DNA of 64,000 bases, taken from the NCBI RefSeq assembly GCF_016612505.1, contig NZ_JAENRR010000001.1, positions 186,001 through 250,000 on the forward strand. The letters run 5' to 3'. This document shows, piece by piece, positions 39,929-64,000 of the stretch (position 1 is the first letter of the stretch; each line of letters opens with the position of its first letter). Made by a program: the position numbers and the translations under genes. The notes below the pieces were generated by a model. It was not told the DNA's origin. It saw nothing but the letters and a program-made list of their open reading frames with translations, and made no database searches. This DNA comes from Carboxylicivirga marina. Its GTDB lineage: Bacteria > Bacteroidota > Bacteroidia > Bacteroidales > Marinilabiliaceae.

Positions 39929-41425
39929 TTAATACATCCCATTATGACAATCGGAGCAAAGCATTTCTTTCCATGCGCCATCAATATCAACAGGATGCCA
40001 GAATTCAAGACCTTTATTGGCTAATGCAACTTGCATTGAATCTCTAGTTCCTTGCGCCATAATAGTGTGGCAAGTATTACAGTCATTACTAATAATATGA
40101 CCTTCTGCACTTTCATGTGTTCCTCCGTGGCACCTAAAACAACCATTAAATTCCTTGTGTCCAATATTCTCAGGATAAGCATCCCAGCGTACCTTCATCT
40201 CCGGAAAGATATTATTCTGATATTCCCTTGTAATAGCAGCAATAGCCTTATCCAAAGCTCCCGGCATGGTATCAAGCACCTCAGCATATGATCCGGTATA
40301 ATATTCTCTTAGCGATTGCTCAATCGCCATCACGGCTGAGTCTGAGGTTGAGTATTCTTCAACGAGAGCCGACATTCCCATCATTTTTATTTCAGGCAAT
40401 TCAGCAGAAACATCGCCTGCAGCCATCAAATGATCCATAATATGATAAGGTGATAGATATTTGTGCGCAGGTCTGTTATGACAATCCATACAGTCCATTG
40501 TTCTGCGATCTAAATGACTTAAACTATCAGGTGTAAGTTGATCCATCATATTCTCATAAACGATGGTATCACCTGTTTCCAGATTAGTGTACTTTACCCA
40601 TGGAATGGTCTGTCGATCCGGAGAAGCAACATACTCAATTTTCACATTCGGATTCATGTGCCAATGTGTTCCTTCTTCCAGATTTTTTGAGGCATGGTCA
40701 CTTCCTACCTTCATACTCATCTGAATATTCCACTCTGTATTTTTTTCATCAGACAAGAAATGCTTTTGATATTTCAGCTGATGAGAGTAAAATTTTTCTG
40801 GCCAGTGGCACTCTTCACAGGTCTCTTTTGATGGCCTTAAGTTGTGAATTGGTGTAGCAATTGGCCTTGAGTATTTATCAAATAAGACAGAATAAACCTG
40901 ACGCATACCTGACATTTTTGATTTTACATACCAGTCAATACCTGAACCAATGTGGCACTCTACACATGCCACCTTAGCATGACCTGAGTTTTGATAGGTT
41001 GTATATTCAGGCCCCATTACATCGTGGCACATGGTACCACAGAATTTCTCAGACTCGGTAAAATGATAGGCCTCGTAACTTCCAATTGATGAAAGTAAAA
41101 TAAGAATTACAGTTCCGGTAATAAAAATAGCTGCTGCGTTACGGTGTTCTTTTTTATTGAAGTCAAACACCATCCATTTACCTTGTAATTCTTCATGTTT
41201 CTCCTTGGCTCTTTTATTTGCTCTTCGCATGCCAAGCGGAATCATCAGGAGACCTATAATCATCACTGCTGGTAAGATAATAAAGGTAAACAGCCCCAGG
41301 TAGGTACTGCTATCCTGATAAATGGCAGTAATAGCCATTAAAAATAAAATTATAAACAAGCTGACAGCTGCAATTAATGTTCCTGCAAAAGATAGCATGT
41401 TGTAATACGACTTGGGTAATTTCAT
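39929..41425 (-). CDS. Inner-membrane heptahaem cytochrome c, NapC/NirT family (ImcH-like)
   Basis: Likely takes electrons from menaquinol in the inner membrane and hands them to periplasmic cytochromes. The 498 residues have three hydrophobic segments (about 10-35, 40-62, 92-115), then seven haem sites: FCGTMCH at about residue 130, which is CX3CH rather than CXXCH, followed by VACVECH, TCEECH, MDCMDCH, GCFRCH, DCNTCH and LCSDCH. The first site plus HDVMGPEY and HAKVACVECHIGSG is the NapC/NrfH core. Three membrane helices and seven haems recall ImcH of Geobacter (from memory), which feeds extracellular electron transfer; NrfH and NapC have one helix and four haems. Last gene of the cytochrome cluster, 33 bases after a CcsBA gene. 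Confidence 0.9.
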   Translation of the reverse strand: MKLPKSYYNMLSFAGTLIAAVSLFIILFLMAITAIYQDSSTYLGLFTFIILPAVMIIGLLMIPLGMRRANKRAKEKHEELQGKWMVFDFNKKEHRNAAAIFITGTVILILLSSIGSYEAYHFTESEKFCGTMCHDVMGPEYTTYQNSGHAKVACVECHIGSGIDWYVKSKMSGMRQVYSVLFDKYSRPIATPIHNLRPSKETCEECHWPEKFYSHQLKYQKHFLSDEKNTEWNIQMSMKVGSDHASKNLEEGTHWHMNPNVKIEYVASPDRQTIPWVKYTNLETGDTIVYENMMDQLTPDSLSHLDRRTMDCMDCHNRPAHKYLSPYHIMDHLMAAGDVSAELPEIKMMGMSALVEEYSTSDSAVMAIEQSLREYYTGSYAEVLDTMPGALDKAIAAITREYQNNIFPEMKVRWDAYPENIGHKEFNGCFRCHGGTHESAEGHIISNDCNTCHTIMAQGTRDSMQVALANKGLEFWHPVDIDGAWKEMLCSDCHNGMY

Positions 41426-41458
41426 AGATTTTATTTTAAATATAATTAGTTGAAAATA

Positions 41459-44293
41459 TTAATTATTTTTTCTCTCTTTTAAATATGCAGTCAGGATTAG
41501 CATTAACATAGCACCTAAAGTACCCCACAACCAAACAGGAAAGATTGGCGGATCATCATTCGCATAAGAATGCAAACCTTTTGTGAAGTAATAATTCACC
41601 CCCACAAAGGTCATTATTACAGTGCCAAAAGAAATGATTGTTGCAACATTAAAAGCAAAGCGTGACCTTAAAGCAGGGATATAGCGAAAATGCAATATCG
41701 TAGCATATACCAGGACAATTATAAGCGACCAGCTTTGCTTGGCATTCCAGCTCCAATAATTCCCCCACGACTCATTGGCCCAGACACAACCAATAAAAGT
41801 ACCAATGGCAGTTAAGAACATACCAATAGTCAATAGTTTTTCATTGATTAAAGTAAGCTCTTTAATTACCAAAGAAAATAACTCACTCTTACCTTTAGGT
41901 CGTAATAGATATAAGCATATATTAATTAGGCCAATTATAAATCCTAAAGCCAGGAAACCATAACCAATTGTTATAATGGCTACGTGAATAATAAGCCAAT
42001 AAGACTTAAGAACAGGATTCAAGTTGGTTAATTGCGGGTCATAATAACTAAGTCCTGCTACCATCAAAAGAACAGAAGCCAGGATAGCCGTGGATGCTAA
42101 TACGATTTTCGAATAGCGAATAACCGACAACCCGGAAATAATGCTTCCCCAGGCTACCAATAACAACACTTCGTAACCATTGCTCCATGGGGCATGACCT
42201 CCCAGGTACCACCTGAGTCCCATGCCGACTGTTTGCCATGCAAAAGCAGCAATAAAAAGAGCCGTAAATACTTTTAATAAATACCTGTTTGCTCGACCAG
42301 GAGTGGTCCTAAAATTATCAATCAGAGCTAAAACCAATAAAATAATGCCTAGTACACCATAAACAAACTTTAGCCGATCGAAGATTCGCAATTTATTATA
42401 TAGTACTTCAAAAGCAATCTTCTTTTCTGAGGGCAATAATTCATGTGGAGTTAATTGCCTTTGAATACTCTTTATATACCCTATTAGCTGATCAGGAACT
42501 GAATAATCATCAGACTCTCTGGCATATAGTGTGGAAACAAAATAAGCCCGCATCATATTGCTATAATTCAACTCCTGAAGTCTTAAGTCTTCATTTAAAA
42601 TGGCAAGTTTGCCTGTAAGTGGTTTAAGTGCCAAAGAATCCCGCCAATGGACCCACTTATTATTAACATCTTTCTCTACAGGAAATAATTTTAAAAAATC
42701 GCCATTAATAAGCATTTGGAAAATATTAACTTTCTCCGTTATCTTAATAATTTCACGATCAAGCGTACTTTGTTCAGATGGATCTGTTTTAAAGGCTGAT
42801 TGAGCTACCTGTTCTAATTTATAATGAAAGGACTTATCAAAAAAATCAATAAATGAAGCCTGCTTACCCGAAAGACCAATCATATTGCGAATGGACTTCT
42901 CTTTCACCACAAACAACTTCTGATTTCTCCAGTAATTAGGATCCAGGTGCAGATCAAGAAAAAGATGCATGGCATCCATTTCTCCTTTCCCCTCAAAATT
43001 AAAATGATCCTTCCCTGTTAGTTTATGAGCTACATCGCTTGCCAATGAATAAACTGAGGTAAACCTGCCTTCATACGTCTGCACCAACAAATGCCCAAAC
43101 CGTTCTGCATGTTCATTACTAATTGGCTTTTGAATATTATTTTGAGCCAAAGAAAAGTTTGATATCGTGAAGAGTAAGGTCAATACCGTTATCAGGGATT
43201 TTCTTTGCCGCCTTACAGCTTGTATTTTTTTGCTTAACTGAGAGAAATGAGAGTTTTTTGATAATAAGATCAGAATGGCTCCTATCGTCATTAATAAATA
43301 CCCCATGTAGGTGATTCGGGTTCCCCAATAATCATAGTTTAATGAAAGGATCGTTCCTTTTTCGTCATCATCGTATGAGGTTTGAAAAAAACGATAACCA
43401 TCGTAATCCAGCACTTTATTTTTAGCCAGTATATGTTCCTGCCTGTGATCATGCCGTTCATCTATTAATAACACCCTGCTTTCTGCGGCTGACGGTATTT
43501 CTGTACCGGGATATTTACTTAGAACAAAATCTTTTAACAATAAACTAAATGGTAATTCCATTGGCTTTGGTCCATAAGTCATTTCTATGGTAAGATCACC
43601 TATATTATATGCCTTAAAAGGTTGTATGTACCTTGTACGATCATAGAAAAGTATTACCTCCTGCTGCTTATCATTATGTGTAAGCTCTACATACAAAGCA
43701 TCCGGACTATCCGTCCTTGAATTTCTTCTGTAATAATCCATTACTATTTCGGCATCCCCCTTATCTCTAAACAAATCGTAGGCCTCAAAAACGTACCTTT
43801 TATAGGTGATTTCAACAGTTCCCTGCGGCGTATTGAACTTCAGGTGGAAATCATTTTGACCTACCTGTGAGAAATATATAGGTTGATCACTTGTATATGC
43901 CATCTCATCACCAGGGAAGTTAATTTGAAAATAAGGTTCGGCCGTATAAATAGTATTGGTCGATTCAGCTTCATTGATGTGCATATTAGCTTCGTAACCC
44001 TTATACCGTGTAATGCCACCTCCTATAATCAATAAGATAAATGAAATATGAAAGATAAGTACCGGTAATTTTTGTAGCTTAAAAAGTTTATTCTGAAATA
44101 CATTAACAAGATATAATATTCCAAACAGCAGCATAAACATCTCGAACCACCAGGCATTGTATATTAACAGTTGTGCTGTTGGTGTGTCATAAAGCTCTTC
44201 AACAACGGTAGCTGCAGCTATAACAATCACAAACAGAAGCAATAATAACACAGAGAACTTTGTTGAAGAGACTGTTTTTATTAATTGCTTCAT
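41459..44293 (-). CDS. Cytochrome c biogenesis protein CcsBA (ResB-CcsA fusion), variant WWD motif
   Basis: System II haem-attachment protein: exports haem and ligates it to CXXCH cysteines outside the inner membrane. 944 residues. The ResB-like N-terminal half has helices at about 10-35, 45-65 and 75-100 (VLIFHISFILLIIGGGITRY), a periplasmic domain, and a helix near 320-340. The CcsA half (about 640-944) has GGHAPWSNGYE, LIIHVAIITIGYGFLALG and HSYANDDPP histidines. The haem-handling WWD motif reads WGNYWSWNAKQSWSL: the usual Asp and Glu are Asn and Gln. The paralogue in the same cluster keeps WGRYWGWDAKETWSL. Sits between the 17-haem and heptahaem genes, preceded by a hairpin. Confidence 0.92.
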   Translation of the reverse strand: MKQLIKTVSSTKFSVLLLLLFVIVIAAATVVEELYDTPTAQLLIYNAWWFEMFMLLFGILYLVNVFQNKLFKLQKLPVLIFHISFILLIIGGGITRYKGYEANMHINEAESTNTIYTAEPYFQINFPGDEMAYTSDQPIYFSQVGQNDFHLKFNTPQGTVEITYKRYVFEAYDLFRDKGDAEIVMDYYRRNSRTDSPDALYVELTHNDKQQEVILFYDRTRYIQPFKAYNIGDLTIEMTYGPKPMELPFSLLLKDFVLSKYPGTEIPSAAESRVLLIDERHDHRQEHILAKNKVLDYDGYRFFQTSYDDDEKGTILSLNYDYWGTRITYMGYLLMTIGAILILLSKNSHFSQLSKKIQAVRRQRKSLITVLTLLFTISNFSLAQNNIQKPISNEHAERFGHLLVQTYEGRFTSVYSLASDVAHKLTGKDHFNFEGKGEMDAMHLFLDLHLDPNYWRNQKLFVVKEKSIRNMIGLSGKQASFIDFFDKSFHYKLEQVAQSAFKTDPSEQSTLDREIIKITEKVNIFQMLINGDFLKLFPVEKDVNNKWVHWRDSLALKPLTGKLAILNEDLRLQELNYSNMMRAYFVSTLYARESDDYSVPDQLIGYIKSIQRQLTPHELLPSEKKIAFEVLYNKLRIFDRLKFVYGVLGIILLVLALIDNFRTTPGRANRYLLKVFTALFIAAFAWQTVGMGLRWYLGGHAPWSNGYEVLLLVAWGSIISGLSVIRYSKIVLASTAILASVLLMVAGLSYYDPQLTNLNPVLKSYWLIIHVAIITIGYGFLALGFIIGLINICLYLLRPKGKSELFSLVIKELTLINEKLLTIGMFLTAIGTFIGCVWANESWGNYWSWNAKQSWSLIIVLVYATILHFRYIPALRSRFAFNVATIISFGTVIMTFVGVNYYFTKGLHSYANDDPPIFPVWLWGTLGAMLMLILTAYLKERKNN

Positions 44294-44313
44294 AAATTTT
44301 GTAATTGTTAGAA

Positions 44314-44337: not shown

Positions 44338-44356
44338 ATTATTATAATATTATTAA

Positions 44357-47300
44357 TTACCAACAGTTCTTACCATTTCCACAGTGTGCATTAGTTGGTC
44401 CGGACCATTGATAGCCCAATCCCGGAATCATTGTACCAATATTCCTTCCGCTAGCAATATCAGGGTCAGAGTGCCATACATAATTTGCTCCTAAAGCATC
44501 ACACTCAGCTTCAGTGTCAAATGTATTATAAGCCGGTGCTTTACCTGAACCAACATACTCTCCATGACCATAATATCCATACCATGAAGGATAAAACCAA
44601 ACACTACCATCAACATGTCTTGATGTACTATATGTTCCTTGCTTTTTAGCTTCACCGCTGGAAGCTCCAGCATCATTATTATGGCACCAGAAACATTGAA
44701 CTGCTAACCAAGAATGTGTTATACCATCTCCATAGGAAGCCTCATCCAGACTAATAAGTTGATCTGGAGAATTATGAGCACCTGTATTTGAACCATGAGC
44801 TCCTGTGCTTGGATACTGACTGGTAGTATTCACATCGGTTACTTGTCCTGTTGAGGTTCCTTCCTGGATAGTATAATTTGGGGCAGCCGGCATCTCAGTT
44901 GGGCCATCGTGACAGGCACTACAAGTAGTTAGAGATCCTCCTACCCAATTGGGAGTTGTTGCATATGTTATAGGAGAAAAAGCTGCACTTGGATTCCACT
45001 CGGCAACTCCTGAAAAACCTCTATTTGCAGTCGTACCTGTACTGTGGCAATAAACATTGCTACATGTACCTCCGTTACCTGCATAACTTGGCGTATTAGC
45101 ATCGGCTCCATTTCGTGTAGCTAAACCACTAAGATCAAACCCTACATCTCCCCGGGTACCATTAACATGACCTGCCTGATGACAAGTAGTGCAATTATAG
45201 CTATACAGGGTACCATCTGTATGTTTATTATGAGCGCCTGTACCACCATGCATTGAAGCATCTGCAGCATGACAATCGCCACAAGCAATGACTCCACCAT
45301 CCCAGGCAGGAACAGTGGCGTAAGTACCGGCTCCATCACTGTGGCAATACACATTCGAACAGCTTGTACCATTCCAGCTTGGAGAAGCGCCACCGGCAGC
45401 TGCTAAACCGGAAGGGTCAAAAACAACATCCTTACTACTTGAAGGGTGACTGGCTTCCGCCCCACCACCCTGACCGTGTCCGAAATGGCAGGTACTACAC
45501 TTATATTCGTAAGTGCCGACGTGCAATGAATGAGCTCCCTCGGTATAACCTTCTGATGCAAGAGGATATTCATAGGGTGTTGAAGCATCGTGGCACGAGT
45601 GACAAGCTCCCGCTGAAGGTGCAAAACCGCCATCATGAGGGTGACAAGACGTACAATTAGCACCATCATTATGACTGCTTCCGCTTCCATCAGCACGGTG
45701 ATATTTAAGAGGAGTACCGTCATCAACATGACACACCTCGCAAATACCATCATAAGTACCATCACCATCAGCGAATGAGGTAAGTGATGGAAACACAACC
45801 GTACTGCCATTCACTACATCATTTACCATATAAATATTGTCCTTGTTGGTGTTATGGACTTTGTGGCAAACTAAACACGAAAGGCTTTTGTGTGTCATAG
45901 CTCCCTCATGGCAATCAAGACAAAGTGTGCCATCATTTGCGGCCTTGAGTAAGTTCCCATCAGTTGTTAATGTGCCGCCGGCCACATCATGAACACCATG
46001 ACATGATGAACAGTTTATCTGCTCTCCATTTGCGGCCAATGTAGGATTATCCACAATTTGGTCACTACTTGTATCCATTACTATACCAACCGGATGACTC
46101 CCTTTATTGCCATTATCGTCTGCATAACGCCCTACATTCCTTGCTGAATGACAATTTTTACACATGACATCATTTGTATTATCAACTCTCAAATAAGGAG
46201 AAGCCGCTGCAGAATTATGTTGATCATGACAAGTTGAACACATAATTTTTCCATCAACCACCCGAATTGCCAACTCACCATCGGCTGGCGTTGGAATATT
46301 CGTTTCATAAGTTGTATTAACAGCATTCACATCCCAGGCATGAGAATTACCTCCAGTTCCCGGAACTGCTTTATCACTGGAATCAAAAGCCTTATTGGAG
46401 GCAATACCAGTACTGATATGACAACTCTGACATTGCAGGAAATTTTCAGTTGATGCCGAAAGTCCTTCTCCCAATGCATTGTGAGTAAAGTGACAGGAAG
46501 TACAATTGGTAGTACTATGATCGGTTGGCGTGGCACTGACTACTGACTTAACAGCAGCTACACTTGTTCCACAAGCATTGGATGCCGTTACTGTAATATC
46601 ACCATTTTGTCCGTCAGATCCGGAAGTCACATAAATTACTGATGTTCCATCTCCTGATTCTATGGACCAACCTGCAGGCACAGTCCAATTATAGCTCGTT
46701 GCTGATTCAACTGCTGGTACATTATACCTTAAACCTGTTGTTCCAGGCCATGCATTTGTTGTGCCATAAATCACAGATGGAATTGCAGGTGTAGTAATTA
46801 CATCAAGCTGAAACACATAATTTCCACTTGACAACCCTGTCGATGAATTTTTGACACTTAGTATTGTACCATATGAAGCAACTCCAGCCCCTCCAGGCAC
46901 TGTTATACTAATCGGACTAGCCGTAAGCGAGGCATCTACAACATCCACAAACCCCTGTCCTTCTGCAAAATCAGAGAAATTGATGCTATATAAATCCGGT
47001 GACTCCGTTGTTGCAGAATAAGTAAGACCCACTGAGGTTGTTCCCTGACAAACAGAAGGATTAGCGCTTAAAGTTATTGTTGGCGGAGAAGATGCCACAG
47101 ACGAAGTAACGGCTAAAACAGATGCCGTACTCGACCCACAAGTGTTATTTGCCGTAACCGTAATATTTCCGTTTTGTCCTTCGCTGCCTGAGGTAAAAGA
47201 AACAGATGTAGTTCCTTGTCCTGAATTGATCGTCCACCCCACAGGTACACTCCAGGTATAATCATCTGCACCTGTCACAGATGAGATGCTATAAACATTT

Positions 47301-49162: not shown

Positions 49163-49189
49163 ATCATCAATATTTCCAATATTAACTTC

Positions 49190-52346: not shown

Positions 52347-53063
52347 TTAGTTTTGAATCTTAGCCTCTTCAATTATTAATTCATACTTGTAGCCAGCTCC
52401 AAAATCTTTATCTATGGCAACCACTCCCTCTAGCATCACGACTGAATTTAATTCAATCAGTTCTGAAGTTGTTATCGTTATATCATAATTAGCGCCGTCT
52501 TTCATTTTCGTTCCATCCTGAATATGAATCCAGTTCTTGTTCATAATGTGGTTATTGACCTTCACCACTTTTCCTTTCACAAGAACCTTTTGCCCACGAT
52601 ACTTTTCTTTGTTTTCAAACAAGTCGTTAAGCATAAGCTGACCTTCTGTGACGTCAATAGAAATGGCTTCATTGGAAACAACCTTTTTAGCTCCGCTATG
52701 CGTATGGGCGTGTGTTGTTTTGCCATGCAATGCATTTAAAAAGTAGATGGTTTCGAAGGTACGGTCTAGTTCCTTGCTCGTAAAGTTATCCATTCGCATT
52801 TCATCAGCATAATGATAGGTCTCACCCACTTTAATATCAGCTTTTGAAATTGCAAACCATTTTTCTTCTTCGCCTTCTGTTGCTCTTACATAGGTATATT
52901 GACCTCCTTGAATAACTTCCTGTGCCACCACATTATTCATTCCGGTTTCAACAGCTTCACCTGGCTCCTGACCTGCCTTTTTTTGTTTAATATTTGAGTT
53001 ACATGCAGTCGCAACTATTACTAACAAAACAACACCTAAAACTTTCATTAACTTGCTTATCAT
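52347..53063 (-). CDS. OB-fold lipoprotein of the cytochrome cluster, copy 2
   Basis: 238 residues. Lipobox Cys in IVATACNSN. Two parts: residues about 45-120 (YTYVRATEGEEEKWFAISK...VGETYHYADEMRMDNFTSKE) and a C-terminal tRNA_anti-like OB-fold (about 155-238: GQKVLVKGKVVKVNNHIMNK, NWIHIQDGT, VVMLEGVVAIDKDFGAGYKY). A His-rich linker (THAHTHSG) joins them. It is clearly a paralogue of the next gene upstream. Periplasmic OB-fold proteins of this kind lie near cytochrome genes in other bacteria as far as I know; nucleic-acid binding is unlikely outside the cell. Role unknown. Confidence 0.8.
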   Translation of the reverse strand: MISKLMKVLGVVLLVIVATACNSNIKQKKAGQEPGEAVETGMNNVVAQEVIQGGQYTYVRATEGEEEKWFAISKADIKVGETYHYADEMRMDNFTSKELDRTFETIYFLNALHGKTTHAHTHSGAKKVVSNEAISIDVTEGQLMLNDLFENKEKYRGQKVLVKGKVVKVNNHIMNKNWIHIQDGTKMKDGANYDITITTSELIELNSVVMLEGVVAIDKDFGAGYKYELIIEEAKIQN

Positions 53064-53082: not shown

Positions 53083-53787
53083 TTATTCGTCAATCCTTTT
53101 TCCTTCCTCAAGAATAATATCGTATCTATATCCGTAACCAAAATCTTTGTCCACTACAACTGTTGCCTCAAAGATAACAACATCCCCAACCTTTACTTCG
53201 TGCGATGTGGTAACAATCAGTTTTTTACTTCCGTTGAATTCGGTACCATCCTGTATATGCACCCAGTTACAATTTAATATTGACTGGTTGTACTTAACCA
53301 CCTGTCCTTTCACTACTACTTGTTGCCCTTCATATCTGGCTACATCAGCCAATAGCTTAGCTATTGGTATGCTATTGGCATCGTGTTCAATATTTACAGG
53401 CTCTATCTTTGTATCTGCGGGCTTGTTAGCACTGGCTGCCTCATGATAGGTGGCGCTATTAGGCGGAAAATCATGAATAGCTGCTAAGAAAATTACTTTC
53501 TTAAATACCCGGTCCAACTCCCCACTTTTAAAATCGCGCATTTCCATGCCATCCGGATAATAGTAGGTGGCTCCCAGCTTCACCTCTCTTTTACGAACAG
53601 CCAGCCAATTTAACGAATCGCCTTCCAGCATCTGTATATAAGTGTATGCACTGGTATTCAATACTTCTTTGACAATGCCCTTATGTACGTTTCCCTTATA
53701 AACACTCTCAGCTTTACTTGTATGATGATGTTGTGCATTAATATTTCCTGCAAAGCACAATAGAAATATTATTATTGATATTCTCAT
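53083..53787 (-). CDS. OB-fold exported protein of the cytochrome cluster, copy 1
   Basis: 234 residues with a cleavable signal peptide (MRISIIIFLLCFAGNINAQ) and no lipobox, unlike its paralogue 19 bases downstream. Same plan: YTYIQMLEGDSLNWLAVRKR...LGATYYYPDGMEMRDFKSGE, then HDFPPNSATYHE, then an OB-fold GQQVVVKGQVVKYNQSILNC, NWVHIQDGTEF and FEATVVVDKDFGYGYRYDII. The mature N-terminus is HHHTSK. One copy soluble, one lipid-anchored suggests a divided role. 12 bases after the CcsBA stop, so translationally linked to it. Confidence 0.8.
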   Translation of the reverse strand: MRISIIIFLLCFAGNINAQHHHTSKAESVYKGNVHKGIVKEVLNTSAYTYIQMLEGDSLNWLAVRKREVKLGATYYYPDGMEMRDFKSGELDRVFKKVIFLAAIHDFPPNSATYHEAASANKPADTKIEPVNIEHDANSIPIAKLLADVARYEGQQVVVKGQVVKYNQSILNCNWVHIQDGTEFNGSKKLIVTTSHEVKVGDVVIFEATVVVDKDFGYGYRYDIILEEGKRIDE

Positions 53788-53799: not shown

Positions 53800-56880
<3,081 letters not shown>

Positions 56881-56947
56881 TCCTAACTTTTTAATTAATT
56901 TATCTATAATGCTACAGGCATTTTGAAAAACGAAGATCTCCTCTCCT

Positions 56948-59812
56948 TTATCCTGCAAGTCCTTGTTCACTATTGTGTTTTTTCAAATAGGCCTGAGTGA
57001 TACGATAGTATTCTAATGAGCCATTTCCATTAAACCCTGTCCTTTCAACTGCTTTAAATTCTTTTGTAAGCTGTTTCATTAACTCCGGCTTAGTCATTAT
57101 CATTTCATATAATTGCTTCTGTTCTTTTTCATCCATATGTTGAGTTGCTATTTGAGTCATTTGATACAAAGTATTACTGTACTCAATACTTGCTACACTA
57201 CCAGCATTATCAACAATAACTTTAGAGGATTTTCCTTTTGCTGTATATGGATTATTTTGCAACACCGATCCGCTAAGTAGTTTAACGGCCAATTCATCAA
57301 GACGATCTTCTTCCCCATTATACACTGATGATTTAGAATGTGTAAAAATTAAATTATAATACTCCATAAAACTAATCAATTCACTACTATCTCCAACTAT
57401 CTCTCTTGTAATAAAATCAATTGACTTATCAGTCTGCTGTTCACTTTCTATTAACAAGGCAGAAGTACTTTCGGGGCTCACTAAAGTGTTCCTTCTGTTA
57501 GCATCAGGTTTGTATATGGAAACCGGCTGTTCTTCTTTTGTTCCATCTCCTTTGTAAGCTATAATTTTAAGTGATAACCTATTCTCTTTTGATGCCCTAT
57601 ACACATTACTTCTATTTTCCTTAGTACTTTCACTTGTAATAAGCCTTTCTCTATCCTTTATCCCTATTTCATCAGCCTCTTTTTGATTCAACGGCTGCGA
57701 CTGCTCCTTATTACTAGTTGCCAGATGTACATCTTTACCTAAATCGACTTCCCTACCTCCTCTTGACTGTTGATACAATAAAGCAAGTAATTCGGATGTT
57801 GAATTTTCAGGTAGCTTTTCGCGTTCTCTATCATAGTCTTTTTTTGCATGACAGCCCGGATAGCACGCCCCTCCATCTGAATCATGCTGATAGCGCATAG
57901 CCATCACTTCCTGACCAAATACAAAATCATGCGCTATTAAGTGCTCATTATCTGAGGCATGTACATCATGACAAATAGCACAGGAGCGTCCCTTATTATC
58001 ATTAATATGCAGGTAGTGAAGATTCACCTTTCCTTCCCTGAATTCAGTGGCATCAGAGGTAATTTTATTTTCGATCAGAGCCGCATCGTGGCAAGAAAAG
58101 CATAATGCAAAACTATCGGCTACAGCCGGTGTATATTCCGATTCAGGAAATACTTCTTTTACAAACTGACCGGTTTTAGCGGTATGCGGATCGTGACAAG
58201 TCACACAACCATCCATCTCAAGGGCAGCATGTACTGTTTTACTATTTTTAAGTTTCTTGCTCATTGCTTCAACAATGCGCCCATCCTTTCTCTTGGTCCT
58301 GTTGTGACAATTCAGACAAACTTCCTTATTATCCTTAATCAGAAAGTATGGCTGATCAGAAGCATGGGGCGAATGGCAAGCCACACACCCTTCTTTATTA
58401 ATCACTGGCCAGTGCACATGTCCGTCACTCTCAACCCGACTGTACATTTCATCATGACAGGTATAACACAGAGCTTTATTCTCTTCAATTAATAACTTAG
58501 TATTTGGTGCATTATGCGTTCCATGACAGTTGGCACAGTCATCATCAAACGGGTAATGCTGGTAGGCCGTTTCTGATTGTATTTTTATATCCTCATGACA
58601 AGAAAAACACAATTGCTTCTTTTCCTTTTTTATGAAATATGGATGATCCGACTCGTGCGGATCATGACACGAACTACATTGCCCCTCCTTAACCGGATAA
58701 TGAACCTTATCTGAATCCGGGATTTCCTGTTCGTGACAGGTTAAACATAGGTTGGAGGCTTTGGGCTCAAGTAAAAGGCTGTTATGAGCCGATGCATGTG
58801 GTGAATGGCAAGTTAAACATTCTCCTTCCGCTGCAGGATAATGCCGGTGAGTTTTAGAATTGAAGTCATGACAATTCAAACATAATGCGGGTACATTCGC
58901 TGTCAGTAAAGCAGCTTGTTCTGAAGCATGGGGCTGATGGCAATTTCCACAATCATCATCAAAGGGGTAATGAATGACCGCCAAGTCATTTTGTTGCTTA
59001 ATATCATCATGACACTCAAAACAAAGGTTCTTTTTCTCTTGTTTCAAAAAGAATGGCTGGTCTGCTGCATGTGGGTCGTGACACATACTACACTCTCCCT
59101 CTGCTGCTGGATAATGTTGGGATGCTTTATCGGCCATTTCCAGATCGTGGCAGTCAGCACATAAAGTTGTTGGTGATTGCTGCAGTAAATAAGATTCATT
59201 GGAGGCATGCGGGTTATGGCAGGTACTGCATTCTCCTTCTGCAGCGGGATAATGCTGATTTGTTTTATTCATCATGTCAGCATCATGACATTCAAAACAA
59301 AGCTTAGAAGGTGTTTGCTTTAGAAAATAGGTTTCATCAGAGGAATGGGGATCATGACATGTGCTGCACTCTCCTTCGGCAGCTGGGTAATGCTGAACAG
59401 ATTTATTGCTTAACTCCAAATCGTGGCACATGACACATACATTGCCTACCGGGTTATCAATCAACAAAGAAGCATGATTGGCTGAATGCACATCATGGCA
59501 GGTATTACATTCGCCTTCCTGAACGGGATAGTGAACATTAGTGTGGGTATTGTTCTCTTCATGACAGTAAAAACAAAGGTCAGGTACTTTATCCATTAAT
59601 TGAAACCCGACGACGCCAGTTTGTGGATGACTCTCACCATTCCCCAAATGGCAATTATCACAGGCGTTATCTTCCAAGGCACCGTGCTTAAAACTTTTAT
59701 CTATGAGAGTCTGATGGCAATCAGCACATGACTGTTCTGAGGAAGCTGTCTGGGCAAAAAGCGCCCCCCTGAAAAACAGTATACTCATAAAACAAATTGC
59801 AAATACTCTCAT
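56948..59812 (-). CDS. Exported 25-haem doubled-CXXCH cytochrome
   Basis: 954 residues with a signal peptide ending near RGALFAQT. Residues about 29-615 hold 24 CXXCH sites arranged as paired repeats of about 40-45 residues (HYPAAEGECSTCHDPHASD, then LCFECHD), the doubled-CXXCH plan. A 25th site, CYPGCH (about 650), is CX3CH. Residues about 655-954 carry no haem and look helical, with long charged segments, an unusual tail for this family. Expected periplasmic or surface electron carrier; many closely spaced haems would form a wire. 12 bases after the beta-barrel gene and before canonical CcsBA, in one operon. Confidence 0.92.
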   Translation of the reverse strand: MRVFAICFMSILFFRGALFAQTASSEQSCADCHQTLIDKSFKHGALEDNACDNCHLGNGESHPQTGVVGFQLMDKVPDLCFYCHEENNTHTNVHYPVQEGECNTCHDVHSANHASLLIDNPVGNVCVMCHDLELSNKSVQHYPAAEGECSTCHDPHSSDETYFLKQTPSKLCFECHDADMMNKTNQHYPAAEGECSTCHNPHASNESYLLQQSPTTLCADCHDLEMADKASQHYPAAEGECSMCHDPHAADQPFFLKQEKKNLCFECHDDIKQQNDLAVIHYPFDDDCGNCHQPHASEQAALLTANVPALCLNCHDFNSKTHRHYPAAEGECLTCHSPHASAHNSLLLEPKASNLCLTCHEQEIPDSDKVHYPVKEGQCSSCHDPHESDHPYFIKKEKKQLCFSCHEDIKIQSETAYQHYPFDDDCANCHGTHNAPNTKLLIEENKALCYTCHDEMYSRVESDGHVHWPVINKEGCVACHSPHASDQPYFLIKDNKEVCLNCHNRTKRKDGRIVEAMSKKLKNSKTVHAALEMDGCVTCHDPHTAKTGQFVKEVFPESEYTPAVADSFALCFSCHDAALIENKITSDATEFREGKVNLHYLHINDNKGRSCAICHDVHASDNEHLIAHDFVFGQEVMAMRYQHDSDGGACYPGCHAKKDYDREREKLPENSTSELLALLYQQSRGGREVDLGKDVHLATSNKEQSQPLNQKEADEIGIKDRERLITSESTKENRSNVYRASKENRLSLKIIAYKGDGTKEEQPVSIYKPDANRRNTLVSPESTSALLIESEQQTDKSIDFITREIVGDSSELISFMEYYNLIFTHSKSSVYNGEEDRLDELAVKLLSGSVLQNNPYTAKGKSSKVIVDNAGSVASIEYSNTLYQMTQIATQHMDEKEQKQLYEMIMTKPELMKQLTKEFKAVERTGFNGNGSLEYYRITQAYLKKHNSEQGLAG
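58440..59560 (-). repeat. Intragenic tandem repeats encoding haem-pair modules
   Basis: The nucleotide sequence shows a recurring pattern of about 130-270 bases coding for HYPAAEGEC..CHDPHAS and LCFECHD modules. Coding repeats, useful to know because they favour recombination and misassembly. Confidence 0.7.
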
Positions 59813-59824
59813 AATAATTTATTA

Positions 59825-61831
59825 TTAAAATCTCCTAATTAGTTTTAATGATAAACGAAATAAATTAAGCTTAGTTTCATAATATATCTGATCATAATAC
59901 TCAATACTGAGCTTACCTTTTAATCTCCGAATATTCAAATCATACTCACACTTTAACCTTAACATTTCTATATAAATATTGCTTCCATCCTGCTTATTAT
60001 AAAAAGCATTGAAATTTAAACCGGAATATTGATTAATTCGATATGAAACTGAACTTGAGAAACTATAAAAATTACGATACTCGTTTGCATCAAAATAGTC
60101 AGCTAACTGATAAGAACAGTTACCTGAAAAGATTATTTTTTTATACCTGCTATTCAAATTGAAAAAATACCTCGTCATATAATAGGGGAACAACCTACTT
60201 AAGTGTTCTTCATACTCAACTCCTGCATTGATTATACCTGTTTTAACCCTGACACCATAAATATTTTGTGTCAGATAATTTAAAGTTGCAGGATTTACAT
60301 TATAAATATCGTTGTATTCATTTATTGAAGACTTATAATAAAGGTTTAGAAAAGAATTAAATAAAAATAGCTGCGCCGAGAACAAACCAGTATTAAGAGT
60401 ATAGCTATTAGATCCTAACTGGATAGACGAATAATCAACATAGATGAGACTATTGTTTGCCATTAAACCTCCTGGCACCCTTTGAATTTCGATATAGTCA
60501 CCTCTCTCATGAATTATATAATCCAGATTTGGTTCATAAAATACAGTATTTGTTATATCAGTAACAATAATGGAATTAACATCAACAAATGGTTCATTCA
60601 ACATAGTTATTGTACCATCCGAAATTTCATGCTGCTCATCGTAAACATTTCTGCTAAGACCTTTGGAATCTGTTGATACATTTCGTTGCGACAAGCCACC
60701 ACCCAGAAATAATTTACCAAAAGGAATATTTTTTTGATAATCAATTTTACCACCTACCGCAAAAACATTTTGGCACATCGCAGGCTGAGTTGACTTAAGG
60801 TAGTCCATAAAAACCTGAGAGCCAAGACTCAAGAATAGCTGATGGCTTAAACGTCCTATTATTTGATTAGATGATATTTTATTACCTGCTGTTGTACTAT
60901 TCCTGAAATTATAATTTGTATTAAGTGTAAAACTATACGGCAACTTTAAAAAGGCATTCTCTTGAATTAAAAAATTGGAACTTTGAATTCCATTCTGTTC
61001 ATGTGAAAAATCTCTAATAAATGTATTTAATGTGTACTTTCTATCTGCATCAAAAGCAAGTTGATTTCGAAAATTTGCGTCAAAAATATTGTTATATATT
61101 TTACCAAAAATATTACTTGTTTGTGTTTTACTTTTATAAGAAACATCTATGTAACTATTATTTCTATCAGAAATATTTGTACTGCTTTTAATCTGATATA
61201 AAATATTCTCATAATTATAGGTTCGTTTTGACTGAATTTCTTCCTGAATATTAACAGATTTTTCAGCAGTAAAAGAAAACGGTGCGAATGAATTTCTGAC
61301 TCTTAAAATTGCTCCGTTAATTTTATTGTTTAAATATATATCGGTCAGGTCTTCACGATTATGTACTACCCGACTTCTGTTAGTATACATCAAAAGAGAA
61401 ACAGGTCTTGTATCAAAGATACTTGCATTAATATAAACCTTTTTCAAATCTCTAACCTCACTTTGATCAGGAAATTGAATATAATCACTTTCTCCAGTTT
61501 TAAGGTCATAATATAAATCTATATTTAACTTAATAAGATTAGGATGCAAAATGTAATTTTTTGATTTATACCCTAAGGCACCTGTAATGAAAGACTGGCT
61601 GGTTTTAACATTTTCAAATTGATAATTTTGATACTTGAATCCATACAAACTCTCTAAGGATACCAAACCTTCATAGGAAAGGACATTCCAGAACTTGTTT
61701 CCCAGCTTCATTTCCCTTCCACTTACCTGAATTGAAACGAACAATAATAATAATAATACTAAATATATGTAAAAAGAAGACTTCAAGTTAATATTTATAC
61801 TAATGAAACATAAAAGGATCTTCACCACCAT
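59825..61831 (-). CDS. Outer-membrane beta-barrel protein, candidate porin of a porin-cytochrome conduit
   Basis: About 668 residues. A strongly hydrophobic export signal (YIYLVLLLLLFVSIQVSG) is followed by alternating polar/hydrophobic strands through the whole length (for example YIDVSYKSKTQTSNIFGK, FTLNTNYNFRNSTTAGN) to the C-terminal Phe (LSLKLIRRF), as in outer-membrane barrels. No haem sites, no plug. The ATG at 61831 overlaps the upstream gene by 32 bases; a TTG at 61786 would start directly at the signal peptide and may be the true start. Placed between a pentahaem lipoprotein and the 25-haem protein, it is the natural barrel for a porin-cytochrome complex like MtrB or OmbB, but I see no sequence proof. 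Confidence 0.75.
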   Translation of the reverse strand: MVVKILLCFISININLKSSFYIYLVLLLLLFVSIQVSGREMKLGNKFWNVLSYEGLVSLESLYGFKYQNYQFENVKTSQSFITGALGYKSKNYILHPNLIKLNIDLYYDLKTGESDYIQFPDQSEVRDLKKVYINASIFDTRPVSLLMYTNRSRVVHNREDLTDIYLNNKINGAILRVRNSFAPFSFTAEKSVNIQEEIQSKRTYNYENILYQIKSSTNISDRNNSYIDVSYKSKTQTSNIFGKIYNNIFDANFRNQLAFDADRKYTLNTFIRDFSHEQNGIQSSNFLIQENAFLKLPYSFTLNTNYNFRNSTTAGNKISSNQIIGRLSHQLFLSLGSQVFMDYLKSTQPAMCQNVFAVGGKIDYQKNIPFGKLFLGGGLSQRNVSTDSKGLSRNVYDEQHEISDGTITMLNEPFVDVNSIIVTDITNTVFYEPNLDYIIHERGDYIEIQRVPGGLMANNSLIYVDYSSIQLGSNSYTLNTGLFSAQLFLFNSFLNLYYKSSINEYNDIYNVNPATLNYLTQNIYGVRVKTGIINAGVEYEEHLSRLFPYYMTRYFFNLNSRYKKIIFSGNCSYQLADYFDANEYRNFYSFSSSVSYRINQYSGLNFNAFYNKQDGSNIYIEMLRLKCEYDLNIRRLKGKLSIEYYDQIYYETKLNLFRLSLKLIRRF

Positions 61832-62360
61832 GTGGATTATGACACTCTGTACAGTTATAATTCCCTATGTCAGCATGAACTTCATTATTCATAACCATTT
61901 TCTGCTCATGACAATGATAGCATAGCAATTGCCCTTCTCTTAAAAGTAAATTACTATTACGAGAATTATGAGCATGATGACACGATGTGCAATAACCAGC
62001 AGATACAGGTCCATGAATATATTTGTATCGATCATTAAAATCCTCATGGCACTGGTAACAAAGGCCTGGCATTTCCTGTCTAAGGTCTCCCATGCTTTGG
62101 GGGATATGACAAATATCACAACTCCTTTCCTGATATGGAGCGTGTTGAATAATCTGATTGTGCCTCTCCCGGGCCGCTGCAAGAACAGATTCGTTATAAC
62201 TAAAATCCCTTATTACCTTTTCGCCTTGACCCTGACTGCCTGGTTTAGGAACACCATCAAAAAAAAATGAAAGAGTCTTATAATGCTTCTCTGTCGAACA
62301 TCCCACTACACAAAAAATGCATAAAATTATAAAGGTCAATCGTAGCATCCACCTATTCAT
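61800..62360 (-). CDS. Pentahaem c-type cytochrome lipoprotein
   Basis: 186 residues. Lipobox Cys in FCVVGCST anchors it to a membrane. Five CXXCH sites between about 80 and 172: SCDICH, LCYQCH, YCTSCH, LCYHCH, NCTECH, arranged as doubled-CXXCH pairs with CHHAHNS and CHNPHGG. Overlaps the beta-barrel gene by 32 bases, so the two are translated together; the pair fits the small cytochrome plus barrel of porin-cytochrome conduits. 6 bases after the propeller lipoprotein gene. Confidence 0.92.
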   Translation of the reverse strand: MNRWMLRLTFIILCIFCVVGCSTEKHYKTLSFFFDGVPKPGSQGQGEKVIRDFSYNESVLAAARERHNQIIQHAPYQERSCDICHIPQSMGDLRQEMPGLCYQCHEDFNDRYKYIHGPVSAGYCTSCHHAHNSRNSNLLLREGQLLCYHCHEQKMVMNNEVHADIGNYNCTECHNPHGGEDPFMFH

Positions 62361-62366
62361 TAGGAA

Positions 62367-63443
62367 TTATATCTTTTCTACCCTTGCGTACACAGATACC
62401 TTATCAGGGCCGTGTTGGTTGGTTACAAATATCAGATATAATAACTTATAGCCAGGTGCAAGAAACTTTTCGAAATATTCATTATTGGTATTATCAATAT
62501 AAATACCGGAAGGCATATACAGATAACCAGGCCCCTGATAGCCTCCCCCTCCAAAAAACATCAATAATTGCCCCTCTTCATTAAATAATTGAACATTTTG
62601 AAAGGCGGCATCAACTGCAAAAATATTTCCTTCGTAGTCAACTCCTATACCCTTTGGTCTGGCAAAGGACCCGAAGTTTAATCCCTGTTTGCCCACAGAC
62701 CTGATATATTTTCCTTCCACTGAATAAACTTTGGTTTTAAAATCACCCCAGTCACTCACATAAATTTTATCGTCTAAAACAGAAATACTCTTGGGCTGGT
62801 ACAGATAACTATCATCACCCTCTTCTACATCAGGGAATGAATACAACTTATTAAAAGGATATGAATTTTCATATACATCAATAGTATGTTTTTCCAGATT
62901 GGTTATAAACAAGTTATCCTCTGTAGTACAAATATCAAAAGGTTTTAGATCATCATTTTTGATTCTACCTATATACTTTTTTTCACTATCAAATATTTTA
63001 ACCTCTCCTGTTCCATTATCTACTATAAATATATGGCCCCGATGATCTACTTCACAGTTTATTGGTAAATTAAGCGACGCTTCACCTTGCGGTTTAAAAT
63101 ACTCAAAACGACCAGATGATAAGTTCATAACAACCAAAGACTTGAGCGCTATATCAGTGATATAAACATAATTTTTCTTAACGGTTATACCATACGGATT
63201 TCTTAATTCCTTAATTTCGACTTCTTCCCCTGTAATGTATTTATAGAAAAAAGATTGTTTTACGGGTTTTAAATCTTCTTCAGAAGTTATTTTATTTAGA
63301 AACTGTATTCTTGCAGTATCAGGAGGTAGTGGAAAAACTAAAAATGATTCTTCTTTAGCAATCTCATTCTTATTAAGCACAGAACACCCTGAATTAAACA
63401 TGAAAAACAAAGCAATTACGGAATAAAAAACAAATTTCAACAT
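62367..63443 (-). CDS. NHL-repeat beta-propeller lipoprotein
   Basis: 358 residues from the ATG at 63443 (MLKFVFYSVIALF), chosen because it begins the lipoprotein signal with lipobox Cys in MFNSGCS; a frame 14 codons longer has a poor signal. Propeller blades repeat as RNPYGITVKKNYVYITDIAL, LPINCEVDHRGHIFIVDNG, QPKSISVLDDKIYVSDWGDF and RPKGIGVDYEGNIFAVDAAF, the 6-bladed NHL fold. The N-terminal part (LPPDTARIQFLNKI) is typical of such lipoproteins near cytochrome genes. Probably a protein-protein scaffold for the outer-membrane cytochromes. 6 bases before the pentahaem gene. Confidence 0.88.
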   Translation of the reverse strand: MLKFVFYSVIALFFMFNSGCSVLNKNEIAKEESFLVFPLPPDTARIQFLNKITSEEDLKPVKQSFFYKYITGEEVEIKELRNPYGITVKKNYVYITDIALKSLVVMNLSSGRFEYFKPQGEASLNLPINCEVDHRGHIFIVDNGTGEVKIFDSEKKYIGRIKNDDLKPFDICTTEDNLFITNLEKHTIDVYENSYPFNKLYSFPDVEEGDDSYLYQPKSISVLDDKIYVSDWGDFKTKVYSVEGKYIRSVGKQGLNFGSFARPKGIGVDYEGNIFAVDAAFQNVQLFNEEGQLLMFFGGGGYQGPGYLYMPSGIYIDNTNNEYFEKFLAPGYKLLYLIFVTNQHGPDKVSVYARVEKI

Positions 63444-63467
63444 AACTTCTAGACAAAAGGGAAAATA

Positions 63468-63495
63468 ATTAGGGCAAATAAGCATTTGCCCTAAT
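63468..63495 (-). terminator. Hairpin after the partial cytochrome gene
   Basis: ATTAGGGCAAAT pairs perfectly with ATTTGCCCTAAT around four bases, followed by a T-rich tail on the minus strand (ATTATTTT). Lies between the partial cytochrome (stop 63520) and the propeller gene, so may end or attenuate transcription there. Confidence 0.65.
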
Positions 63496-63519
63496 AGAAT
63501 TTACATTATGCAATAATAA

Positions 63520-64000
63520 TTATTTATTGTGGCACTCCAGACACAACGCACTGCCTGCATTACTAACTCTCAATAAACTAGGAACACCGGCAACACCATG
63601 AGGATCGTGACATGAAGCACATTCAACAGTTCTTGAGCCATTTGCACCAAAAAGAAAATCTACCTCGATGGTATTTGTCCCAAATGAGCTAATTTCTGAT
63701 TCTGGATCCTTTAAACCTCCATCTGCAGTTGCAAGGTCAACATCATAAATAAATGAAACAGGGTGATCATTAGATAAATCAACACCTACTATAGTATTAG
63801 CTCCAGTATACTCCGTATTCATGTTAGTCGTACCTGCAGATCCACCATGTGCATCAAGATTAGATGTTCCATCATGGCAACTCAGACATTTTAAAGATAT
63901 CCCTCCTGGAGCTGAAGTACTACCTTGGAAAGTACCTGAAGAATACATTGTAAAACCTGTATTAGCACGAACAGCGTGATTCCATAAAGGAGCATCTGCA
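63520..64000 (-). CDS. Multihaem c-type cytochrome, C-terminal part (cut by window edge)
   Basis: The frame is open to the window end with no need of the internal ATG at 63948, so the gene continues beyond 64000. Visible haem sites: KCLSCHDG, ECASCHDPHG and LCLECHNK at the very C-terminus. The pieces PLWNHAV, YSSGTFQG and NDHPVSF are typical of doubled-CXXCH cytochromes in which a WNH..YSS segment precedes each haem pair. Same strand as the rest of the cluster. Confidence 0.88.
   Translation of the reverse strand, partial: ADAPLWNHAVRANTGFTMYSSGTFQGSTSAPGGISLKCLSCHDGTSNLDAHGGSAGTTNMNTEYTGANTIVGVDLSNDHPVSFIYDVDLATADGGLKDPESEISSFGTNTIEVDFLFGANGSRTVECASCHDPHGVAGVPSLLRVSNAGSALCLECHNK

What the first reader, a model, noticed from the sequence alone, without database searches (positions are those of the whole stretch)
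39929..64000. A 24-kb multihaem electron-conduit cluster in a Bacteroidota genome
Twelve consecutive minus-strand genes supply every layer of an extracellular electron transfer route: quinol-oxidising heptahaem NapC/NirT protein in the inner membrane, two CcsBA haem ligases, 25-haem and 17-haem exported wires, a pentahaem lipoprotein overlapping an outer-membrane barrel, propeller and OB-fold accessory proteins, and a T9SS-exported partner. I count 54 haem sites in complete genes (7+17+25+5) and three more in the cut gene. No NrfA-type or other recognisable terminal reductase is visible. Such a layout with T9SS and PKD parts differs from the Shewanella Mtr and Geobacter Pcc systems I know. The function is inferred.
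Basis: partly seen in the sequence, partly recalled or inferred. Interest (0 to 1): 0.88.

Follow-up and report, generated by a model that had tools for sequence, protein, structure and literature searches.

The report
Variable-length outer-membrane electron conduit
This bacterium carries genes for a protein wire that probably carries respiratory electrons out through its outer membrane, and relatives of the same wire, built in different lengths, turn up in many little-studied bacteria.

Summary
Twelve minus-strand genes (39929-64000) encode an ImcH-type quinol dehydrogenase (7 haem motifs), two CcsBA-type haem ligases, 17- and 25-haem cytochromes, a pentahaem lipoprotein, an outer-membrane barrel and NHL/PKD accessories. 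The cut gene has 4 motifs, not 3. The cluster runs on to a haem-carrying sensor kinase, a sigma54 regulator, a 12-haem cytochrome and a second NHL protein: 75 motifs in all. No NrfA lies before the contig end; the genome's NrfHA is on another contig. The core, tetrahaem-NHL-pentahaem-barrel-wire, is not unique: pentahaem-barrel-wire follows the NHL gene in 69 of 79 loci from Bacteroidota, Chlorobiota/Ignavibacteria, Calditrichota and KSB1. The barrel gives a confident beta-barrel model without sequence similarity to MtrB. The wire has fixed ends and an extensible middle: mostly 9, 11 or 15 motifs, 25 here. Three of 66 wires end in an OmpA domain, which suggests a periplasmic C-terminus. All 13 congeners lack the barrel. 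Best reading: a porin-cytochrome conduit of an uncharacterised family, most like Uet in parts list. Direction and acceptor are inferred, not shown.

The parts
39929..41425 (-). ImcH-type heptahaem quinol dehydrogenase (498 aa; three N-terminal TM stretches, Cx3CH at 129, six CxxCH)
   Evidence: PF03264 E 3e-11; hydropathy; fits the ImcH description in PMC6295460; below the NrfH cut-off (50.7 against 134.2 bits)
41459..44293 (-). CcsBA-type cytochrome c haem ligase 1
   Evidence: PF01578 and PF05140 over cut-off; TIGR03144 below its cut-off
44357..49162 (-). PKD_6-domain 17-haem cytochrome (15 CxxCH + 2 Cx4CH) with N-terminal signal-like stretch; likely extracellular
   Evidence: homologues beside NHL proteins in relatives
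49190..52168 (-). NHL propeller, Ig-like and PKD domains, T9SS type A sorting tail; likely extracellular partner of the 17-haem cytochrome
   Evidence: PF18962 E 7e-13, PF18911, NHL; TIGR04183 E 1.5e-11
52347..53063 (-). Accessory lipoprotein (238 aa), no clear hit of its own; paralogue of the next gene, perhaps OB-fold
53083..53787 (-). Accessory protein (234 aa), perhaps OB-fold; family seen in 22 of 80 relative loci
53800..56970 (-). CcsBA-type cytochrome c haem ligase 2
   Evidence: PF01578 E 6e-42, PF05140
56948..59812 (-). 25-haem wire: 3-motif N-cap, 16-motif ladder of doublets, 6-motif C-core, then about 290 aa of haemless tail with no family hit
59825..61831 (-). Outer-membrane beta-barrel of the conduit (668 aa, about 28 long strands plus a small inserted domain near residues 404-470)
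   Evidence: AlphaFold2 pLDDT 89.4, pTM 0.69; Foldseek; no Pfam or NCBIfam hit
61800..62360 (-). Pentahaem lipoprotein (lipobox VVGC by reading), overlaps the barrel ORF by 32 bases
62367..63485 (-). NHL beta-propeller lipoprotein
   Evidence: PF01436; alignment A2; query of the 80-locus scan
63520..64000 (-). 3' part of a tetrahaem secreted cytochrome (complete as L003:1021-1695, 224 aa)

Best explanation
The cluster encodes a complete trans-envelope electron conduit, most likely for respiration on an extracellular acceptor. An ImcH-type protein takes electrons from menaquinol at the inner membrane. They enter a 25-haem wire that is long enough on paper to cross much of the periplasm and that docks, with a pentahaem lipoprotein, in a beta-barrel of about 28 strands in the outer membrane. 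Outside, a tetrahaem and a 12-haem cytochrome, and here also a T9SS-exported propeller protein with a 17-haem PKD cytochrome, pass electrons to a mineral, humic compound, electrode or partner cell. Two CcsBA-type ligases supply the haem load; a kinase with its own CxxCH motif and a sigma54 regulator switch the cluster. Shown here: gene content, haem motifs, barrel model, conserved gene order across phyla, and the length variation of the wire. Inferred: direction, acceptor, physical contacts, span, regulation, and which protein sits inside the barrel.
For: Gene and haem content. ImcH features: PMC6295460 gives, for the Geobacter-group ImcH, 495-519 aa, three N-terminal TM segments, a CX3CH next to them and six CX2CH (passages); ours is 498 aa with that pattern. 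Barrel model pLDDT 89.4; Foldseek matches with E down to 4e-9, the 50 rows shown being outer-membrane proteins as far as titles and recall tell, MtrB (6r2q_B) among them. The wire family's profile has chain A of the Mtr complex (6r2q_A) as best of 18 PDB matches, E 7e-18. Pentahaem-barrel-wire after the NHL gene in 69 of 79 loci; the other 10 are 7 contig ends and 3 with a split or unrecognised gene. This meets the three-element conduit definition used in PMC6148476 (section read). ImcH-type homologues lie in the same fetched stretch as the module in L089, L090 and L099 (3 of 80 loci) and in G099. The kinase has a CxxCH in its first 260 aa in 27 of 27 relatives of 400-620 aa. T9SS marker SprA is present.
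Against: No protein was localised and no acceptor tested. The haem chain inside the barrel is not identified: OmpA tails on three wires and one pentahaem fusion put both C-termini on the periplasmic side and do not show what faces out. No solved barrel superposes well: TM-scores in the rows shown are 0.42 or lower. The AlphaFold model of the 9-haem relative failed (pLDDT 43). The window's barrel is a long branch (2.2 changes per column) and the barrel is absent from all 13 congeners, so the cluster may be recently acquired and not established as functional. ImcH-type genes also occur in 7 of 13 congeners without the barrel and were seen in only 3 of the 80 relative loci, so that gene may serve another pathway.
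Confidence: 0.72

Rival explanations
1. The same conduit runs inward: it takes electrons from Fe(II), metallic iron or a partner cell into the quinone pool, as proposed for Mto, PCC3 and Uet.
For: Multihaem conduits can run both ways; the parts list resembles Uet (tetrahaem, NHL units, barrel, doubled-CXXCH undecahaem), found in cathode-oxidising Tenderiales (PMC10734462 passages). PCC3 was found by searching Fe(II) oxidisers (PMC5566968 passages).
Against: The linked quinone enzyme is ImcH-type, so far implicated only in quinol oxidation (PMC6295460 passages). Carbon-fixation and electron-uptake markers were not looked for.
Confidence: 0.15
2. The cluster is an ordinary periplasmic respiratory operon (nitrite, sulfite or similar) whose barrel and exported proteins serve substrate access rather than electron export.
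For: CcsBA and NapC/NirT proteins are common in nrf operons (recalled); the genome does have NrfHA, and a c554-like gene stands at the contig end.
Against: NrfHA is on another contig (C121). No recognised terminal reductase among the scanned ORFs from 39929 to the contig end. In 69 of 79 relative loci a barrel is flanked directly by two multihaem cytochromes.
Confidence: 0.07
3. The cluster is a decayed or chimeric acquisition that does not work in this genome.
For: Barrel absent from 13 of 13 congeners; nucleotide similarity to two congeners stops just after the gene at 37792-39045 and another cytochrome module stands there in both; very divergent barrel. Only one flank is available.
Against: The ORFs are open and the haem motifs intact; G+C equals the flank (0.384 against 0.383); listed contamination 0.89%. 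A same-family genome, G612, holds the same module with a 21-haem wire.
Confidence: 0.06

Closest known systems
Uet (undecahaem electron transfer) complex of Tenderiales and Gallionella
   Same: Tetrahaem cytochrome, beta-barrel, NHL units and a doubled-CXXCH multihaem protein; Uet's 11 or 12 motifs compare with 11 in 11 of 66 wires here. Source: PMC10734462 passages.
   Different: Uet has trihaem cytochromes and a peptidyl-prolyl isomerase, not seen in this cluster; this module has a pentahaem lipoprotein and a 12-haem cytochrome. Sequence homology could not be tested: no Uet sequence was at hand and the Uet paper is not held.
PCC3 of iron oxidisers
   Same: Barrel with very large periplasmic (21, 24 or 27 motifs in Gallionellaceae) and extracellular cytochromes; repeat units with at least one haem each; suggested to be able to span the periplasm (PMC5566968, PMC10734462 passages).
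   Different: PCC3 has a 300-aa, five-TM inner-membrane protein; none was found in this cluster, which has an ImcH-type protein instead.
Shewanella MtrCAB
   Same: Works alike in outline; the wire family's first five motifs match MtrA (E 7e-18), and the 12-haem protein and the wire match MtrC/MtrF domain II/IV (PF22113).
   Different: Barrel without detectable sequence similarity to MtrB and superposing poorly (TM 0.35); haem numbers differ; no adjacent decahaem MtrC-type lipoprotein was found.
Geobacter Pcc and Ext conduits (OmbB-OmaB-OmcB, ExtABCD, ExtEFG, ExtHIJKL)
   Same: Barrel with multihaem partners, including pentahaem lipoproteins (ExtC, ExtF; PMC6148476 section); ImcH occurs in Geobacter (PMC6295460).
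   Different: The section read names no NHL lipoprotein and no wire of variable length; porin homology not testable here.
Putative non-homologous PCCs noted in Bacteroidetes metagenome bins
   Same: PMC6344600 reports putative novel PCC genes in 'a number of Bacteroidetes' (passages).
   Different: The passages seen give no gene order, NHL partner or haem ladder; whether they are the same genes is unknown (supplement not available).

Membership tests
Porin-cytochrome conduit (general) | Outer-membrane beta-barrel encoded beside multihaem cytochromes | tested here: met
   Barrel model and Foldseek; flanking 5- and 25-haem genes; same order in relatives
Porin-cytochrome conduit (general) | Electron flow across the outer membrane | not testable with these tools
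   Needs biochemistry or genetics
ImcH | About 495-519 aa, three N-terminal TM, CX3CH next to TM3, six CX2CH | tested here: met
   498 aa; hydropathy peaks 17-35, 44-62, 97-115; Cx3CH at 129; six CxxCH against PMC6295460
ImcH | Sequence homology to Geobacter ImcH | not tested
   No Geobacter ImcH sequence was at hand
MtrCAB | MtrB-family barrel | tested here: not met
   No Pfam hit up to E 0.01; profile A1 finds no MtrB in the PDB up to E 1; TM 0.35 to 6r2q_B
MtrCAB | Decahaem MtrA/DmsE-family cytochrome | tested here: inconclusive
   Wire-family profile matches 6r2q_A, E 7e-18, positions 35-153 of 309. The window wire scores 242.6 bits against TIGR03508's 192.2 cut-off, but in 5 stretches of a long repeat protein. 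Motif number 25 here, mostly 9-15 in relatives
PCC3 | 300-aa inner-membrane protein with five TM | tested here: not met
   No such ORF in the lists; of 13 proteins examined only the ImcH-type and CcsBA proteins have several hydrophobic stretches
Uet | Tetrahaem, two NHL proteins, barrel, doubled-CXXCH multihaem | tested here: met
Uet | Trihaem UetDEG and isomerase UetB | tested here: not met
   None among the ORFs scanned from 39929 to the contig end; ORFs under 80-90 aa were not scanned
Uet | Sequence homology of barrel and wire to UetC and UetJ | not testable with these tools
   No Uet sequences at hand; paper not held
Geobacter OmbB / ExtB / ExtE / ExtI porins | Porin sequence homology | not testable with these tools
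   No reference sequences; NCBIfam scan of the barrel gave no family up to E 0.1, but which porin models it holds was not checked
T9SS cargo | C-terminal sorting domain, and T9SS in the genome | tested here: met
   PF18962, TIGR04183, SprA; for 49190-52168 only

The most novel reading that the evidence does not exclude
The conduit family uses a telescoping protein wire: one covalent cytochrome whose two ends are fixed (a 3-haem cap and a 6-haem core) and whose middle is lengthened, over evolution, two haems at a time, so that the long forms (25 haems and more) bridge inner-membrane quinol oxidase and outer-membrane barrel directly, anchored at the cell wall, with no diffusible carrier. The length would be set by envelope geometry or by whether a periplasmic shuttle exists.
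Probability: 0.3. Interest if true: 0.85.

Novelty: new variant of a known kind. Interest (0 to 1): 0.64.

Why it matters
Extracellular electron transfer is known mainly from Shewanella and Geobacter, and surveys search with models built on those (for example four porin models in PMC7399161). A conserved conduit with its own barrel family in Bacteroidota, Chlorobiota/Ignavibacteria, Calditrichota and KSB1 would give a genetic marker for electron export in phyla known largely from metagenomes. The natural series of wire lengths within one conduit makes an open question testable: does one cytochrome cross the periplasm, or do small carriers shuttle?

Tried and rejected
Structure of the wire: AlphaFold2 on the 9-haem relative L042 with 22 relatives gave pLDDT 43; no fold search was run on it. 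Relation to MtrB by sequence: none found. A second structural aligner was not available. NrfA just beyond the window: looked for, not there. Surface display of the pentahaem lipoprotein through an acidic export signal: 0 of 44 regex-positive relatives have two acidic residues at +2 to +6 (44 of 76 passed my strict lipobox regex, and by reading most of the other 32 show a cysteine in the same place; the rule about acidic signals is recalled). Sigma54 promoters: a strict pattern upstream of tetrahaem-type ORFs in 6 of 46 from loci with the regulator and 1 of 57 from loci without; a looser pattern is in 4 of 46 (shuffle mean 0.45, maximum 3); none before three genes of L003 or nine of the window; weak, not used. 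Two independent 15-to-19 expansions, suggested by sister pairs on the barrel tree: withdrawn, because the two inserts are alike and a tree of the wire cores pairs the two 19-haem forms with each other (support 47). Horizontal transfer by G+C: cluster equals flank, uninformative; the barrel alone is low (0.293). Haemless tail of the 25-haem protein: no Pfam hit, no BLAST relative among the proteins of the loci then compared. OB fold of the two small proteins: weak. Literature: ten searches, with passages or a section read in ten of the papers listed, showed no description of this NHL-pentahaem-barrel-wire module; the library holds open-licence papers only and no supplements could be read.
Full report
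WHAT IS THERE. The window is C111:186001-250000 of a 5.65-Mb assembly in 206 contigs. From 39929 to 64000 there are twelve minus-strand ORFs, eleven complete and one cut. Pfam and NCBIfam give a NapC/NirT protein, two ResB+CcsA (CcsBA-type) haem ligases, a PKD_6 multihaem protein, an NHL/PKD protein with a T9SS tail, two small proteins without clear hits, a long doubled-CXXCH cytochrome, a 668-aa protein without hits, a small doubled-CXXCH lipoprotein and an NHL protein. Haem motifs are 7, 17, 25 and 5 in complete genes; shuffles give at most 2 CxxCH. Beyond the window the contig runs 7,128 bases further and holds the rest of the tetrahaem gene (4 motifs, not 3), a sigma54 response regulator, a sensor kinase with one CxxCH, a 564-aa 12-haem cytochrome, an NHL protein and a divergent 4-haem c554-like gene. 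The sum is 75 motifs.

NO TERMINAL REDUCTASE NEARBY. PF02335 (NrfA) has one match in the genome, on C121, with an NrfH-like gene upstream. Of 21 listed matches to the paired-CXXCH family in the genome, 20 lie on C111 and one on C132.

THE QUINOL ENZYME. PMC6295460 (passages read) describes the Geobacter-group ImcH as 495-519 aa with three N-terminal TM segments, an atypical CX3CH next to them and six CX2CH, and ImcH as implicated only in quinol oxidation so far. The protein at 39929-41425 has 498 aa, hydropathy peaks at 17-35, 44-62 and 97-115, a Cx3CH at 129 and six CxxCH. It is well below the NrfH and NapC/NirT subfamily cut-offs of NCBIfam; its best solved relative is NrfH (E 1.7e-5). By its features it is ImcH-type; direct comparison with Geobacter ImcH was not possible.

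THE BARREL. With 61 relatives (alignment A3) AlphaFold2 gives pLDDT 89.4, pTM 0.69 and about 28 long strands plus a small domain around 404-470 (strand number read from the DSSP list). The 50 Foldseek rows shown (196 matches at E 0.001 or less) are outer-membrane proteins as far as titles and recall tell; MtrB (6r2q_B) is rank 30 with TM 0.35 and rmsd 16.7, and the rows' TM-scores are 0.42 or lower. A profile of ten barrels finds no related PDB sequence; the one match up to E 1 is a phosphatase regulatory subunit at 0.34. So: an outer-membrane barrel, of a family that is not MtrB by the tests made.

HOW FAR IT SPREADS. A scan of genome contigs with the NHL lipoprotein alignment gave 232 relatives, 80 kept; titles name Bacteroidetes/Bacteroidales, Cyclobacteriaceae, Flavobacteriaceae, Chlorobiota, Melioribacteraceae, Calditrichota, KSB1, a 'Deferribacteres' and a Gemmatimonadota. 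In 79 of the 80 an ORF carries the NHL label; the exception is the Gemmatimonadota locus L055, which has only an NHL-like and a barrel-like ORF. Of the 79, 75 have the pentahaem-type gene next, 74 pentahaem then barrel, and 69 pentahaem-barrel-wire; 74 of the 77 with an upstream gene have the tetrahaem gene there. The 10 that miss the full order are 7 contig ends, two split genes and one unrecognised pentahaem gene. The barrel occurs in 11 of 198 genomes of the order (own genome included; one, G125, has broken copies), in 2 of 395 of the phylum at near full length (own included; 3 more matches are short), in 2 of 71 of the family and in none of 13 congeners, but in 11 of 40 genomes of the phylum of G658, the genome of L090, titled Calditrichota (G658 itself included, 3 of the 11 only in part). 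One of these, G663, has the whole module with a 15-haem wire on a contig of 4,978,541 bases. The order is probably Bacteroidales: contig lengths of G062 and G100 equal those of records titled Bacteroidales.

THE WIRE. Motif counts in the 66 are 15 (26 wires), 9 (23), 11 (11), 19 (2), and 21, 14, 7 and 6 (one each); 64 of 66 are odd. The 6 is a short ORF and the 14 lacks the last motif. The window has 25. L054, outside the 66 because its pentahaem gene is split, has 26, with one 47-aa gap where two steps would fit, so one motif may have been lost. The doublet, the Pfam unit Paired_CXXCH_1, is thus the usual step. Length is inherited but labile: on the barrel tree (68 rows; three rows with 6, 7 or 14 motifs left unlabelled) the count changes at least 15 times, against a mean of 31.6 and a minimum of 26 in 200 shuffles; on a tree of the wire cores alone (65 rows, quick method, 187-198 aa) at least 10 times, against 31.6 and 25. 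Seven states need at least 6. The 19-haem forms differ from 15-haem relatives by one clean internal insert with four motifs; barrel and wire trees disagree on how these four genomes pair, so barrel and wire may not share one history. Ladder doublets within the window protein reach 63% identity, too low for an assembly artefact of identical repeats. The wire family's profile has 6r2q_A as best of 18 PDB matches (E 7e-18, first five motifs), followed by NrfB (2e-7) and weaker multihaem proteins; the table's molecule name for 6r2q_A is odd, and that it is MtrA is my reading of the entry, the Mtr complex (title).

TOPOLOGY HINT. Four of the 66 wires have long tails, over 160 aa after the last motif against at most 54 in the rest. 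Three (L060, L067, L071) end in an OmpA domain over the Pfam cut-off and one (L043) in a sub-threshold SPOR match (17.1 against 21 bits). One pentahaem protein, L080, is fused to OmpA; of the four long pentahaem fusions L073 (no OmpA) and L080 were scanned, L082 and L115 were not. OmpA and SPOR domains bind peptidoglycan (established knowledge), which suggests that these C-termini are periplasmic. The window's own 290-aa tail has no hit. Which chain fills the barrel stays open, and the AlphaFold model of the 9-haem form failed. That 25 haems could span the periplasm is an extrapolation, not a measurement.

THE EXPORTED ADD-ON. An NHL protein paired with a 17-20-haem cytochrome recurs beside the module in some relatives (L050, L051, L059, L065, L069, L070, L087, and G152, G168; some are cut by the contig end), with or without PKD domains. 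A 19-haem protein of about 930 aa stands near the module in G099, G170 and G172; G170, whose contig is L087, has both kinds. These look like variable outer ends on a constant conduit (inference).

ORIGIN IN THIS GENOME. Seven genes from 31398 to 39045 match G604 at 80-97% protein identity in the same order. Nucleotide similarity to G604 and G602 stops at about 39075 and 39123, and both carry there another module (cytochrome b561, 7- and 6-haem cytochromes, a class I cytochrome and a DUF5777 barrel; G602's genes identified, G604's by matching size and order). The conduit was therefore probably gained at, or swapped into, a respiratory locus; loss in all 13 congeners is less simple. One flank only; a chimeric contig is not excluded. 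ImcH-type genes (53-57% identity) are in 7 of 13 congeners without the barrel; in the five of these regions that were fetched no other multihaem ORF was listed (G600's contig is only 7.4 kb).

WHAT IS KNOWN. Papers were read as found passages, one also as a section: PMC6148476 (Ext conduits), PMC5566968 (PCC3), PMC10734462 (PCC3, Uet), PMC6295460 (ImcH), PMC6344600 (novel PCCs in Bacteroidetes), PMC7399161 and PMC4245776 (PCCs in Ignavibacteria), PMC9769857 and PMC12016550 (NHL genes among cytochromes elsewhere), PMC11748539. The nearest parts list is Uet; the nearest idea of a periplasm-spanning cytochrome is PCC3. Neither is met in full, and homology to Uet could not be tested. PMC9769857 is a caution: deleting cytochrome genes of two NHL-linked clusters in Desulfovibrio ferrophilus did not impair Fe(III) oxide reduction.

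VERDICT. Observation confirmed; extracellular electron transfer is likely but inferred. New here, as far as the searches show: the module is a conserved FCB conduit family with a barrel outside MtrB, and its wire comes in a length series that mostly steps by haem doublets.

Noticed in passing
L171:12485-17914 and G604:C14:65753-71243: At the locus where this genome has the conduit, two congeners carry a different electron-transfer module: cytochrome b561, 7- and 6-haem cytochromes, a class I cytochrome c and a DUF5777 barrel. ORFs of similar size and haem number stand near the conduit and an ImcH-type gene in G099, which hints at a second conduit type.
   Followed up: partly
window 56948-57826 (C-terminal tail of the 25-haem protein): About 290 residues without haem motifs, Pfam match or BLAST relative among the loci compared; three relatives carry an OmpA domain in that position.
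   Followed up: partly
L003:3280-4770: The sensor kinase has a CxxCH in its N-terminal part, as do all 27 relatives of 400-620 aa examined: a probable haem-based redox or gas sensor for the conduit.
   Followed up: partly
G000:C203:3112-3588 (L116): A NapC/NirT-type cytochrome whose ORF continues into what reads like a formylglycine-generating (sulfatase-modifying) domain, followed by a Gfo/Idh-like gene; domain names are from reading, not from a scan.
   Followed up: no
G000:C132:38118-38207 (L135): A 769-aa multihaem protein with what look like TPR repeats, beside a Rieske-like gene (by reading); the only listed paired-CXXCH match outside contig C111.
   Followed up: no
G658:C7:57723-59666 and 98454-100412: One genome holds two full-length barrels about 40 kb apart on the same contig.
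   Followed up: no
G125:C12:54191-61611 (L032): The module is present but several genes are split into pieces: apparently a decayed copy.
   Followed up: no
L051, L065, L045, L069: Barrel and wire-core trees pair these four genomes differently, which hints at recombination between barrel and wire genes, or at weak support.
   Followed up: partly
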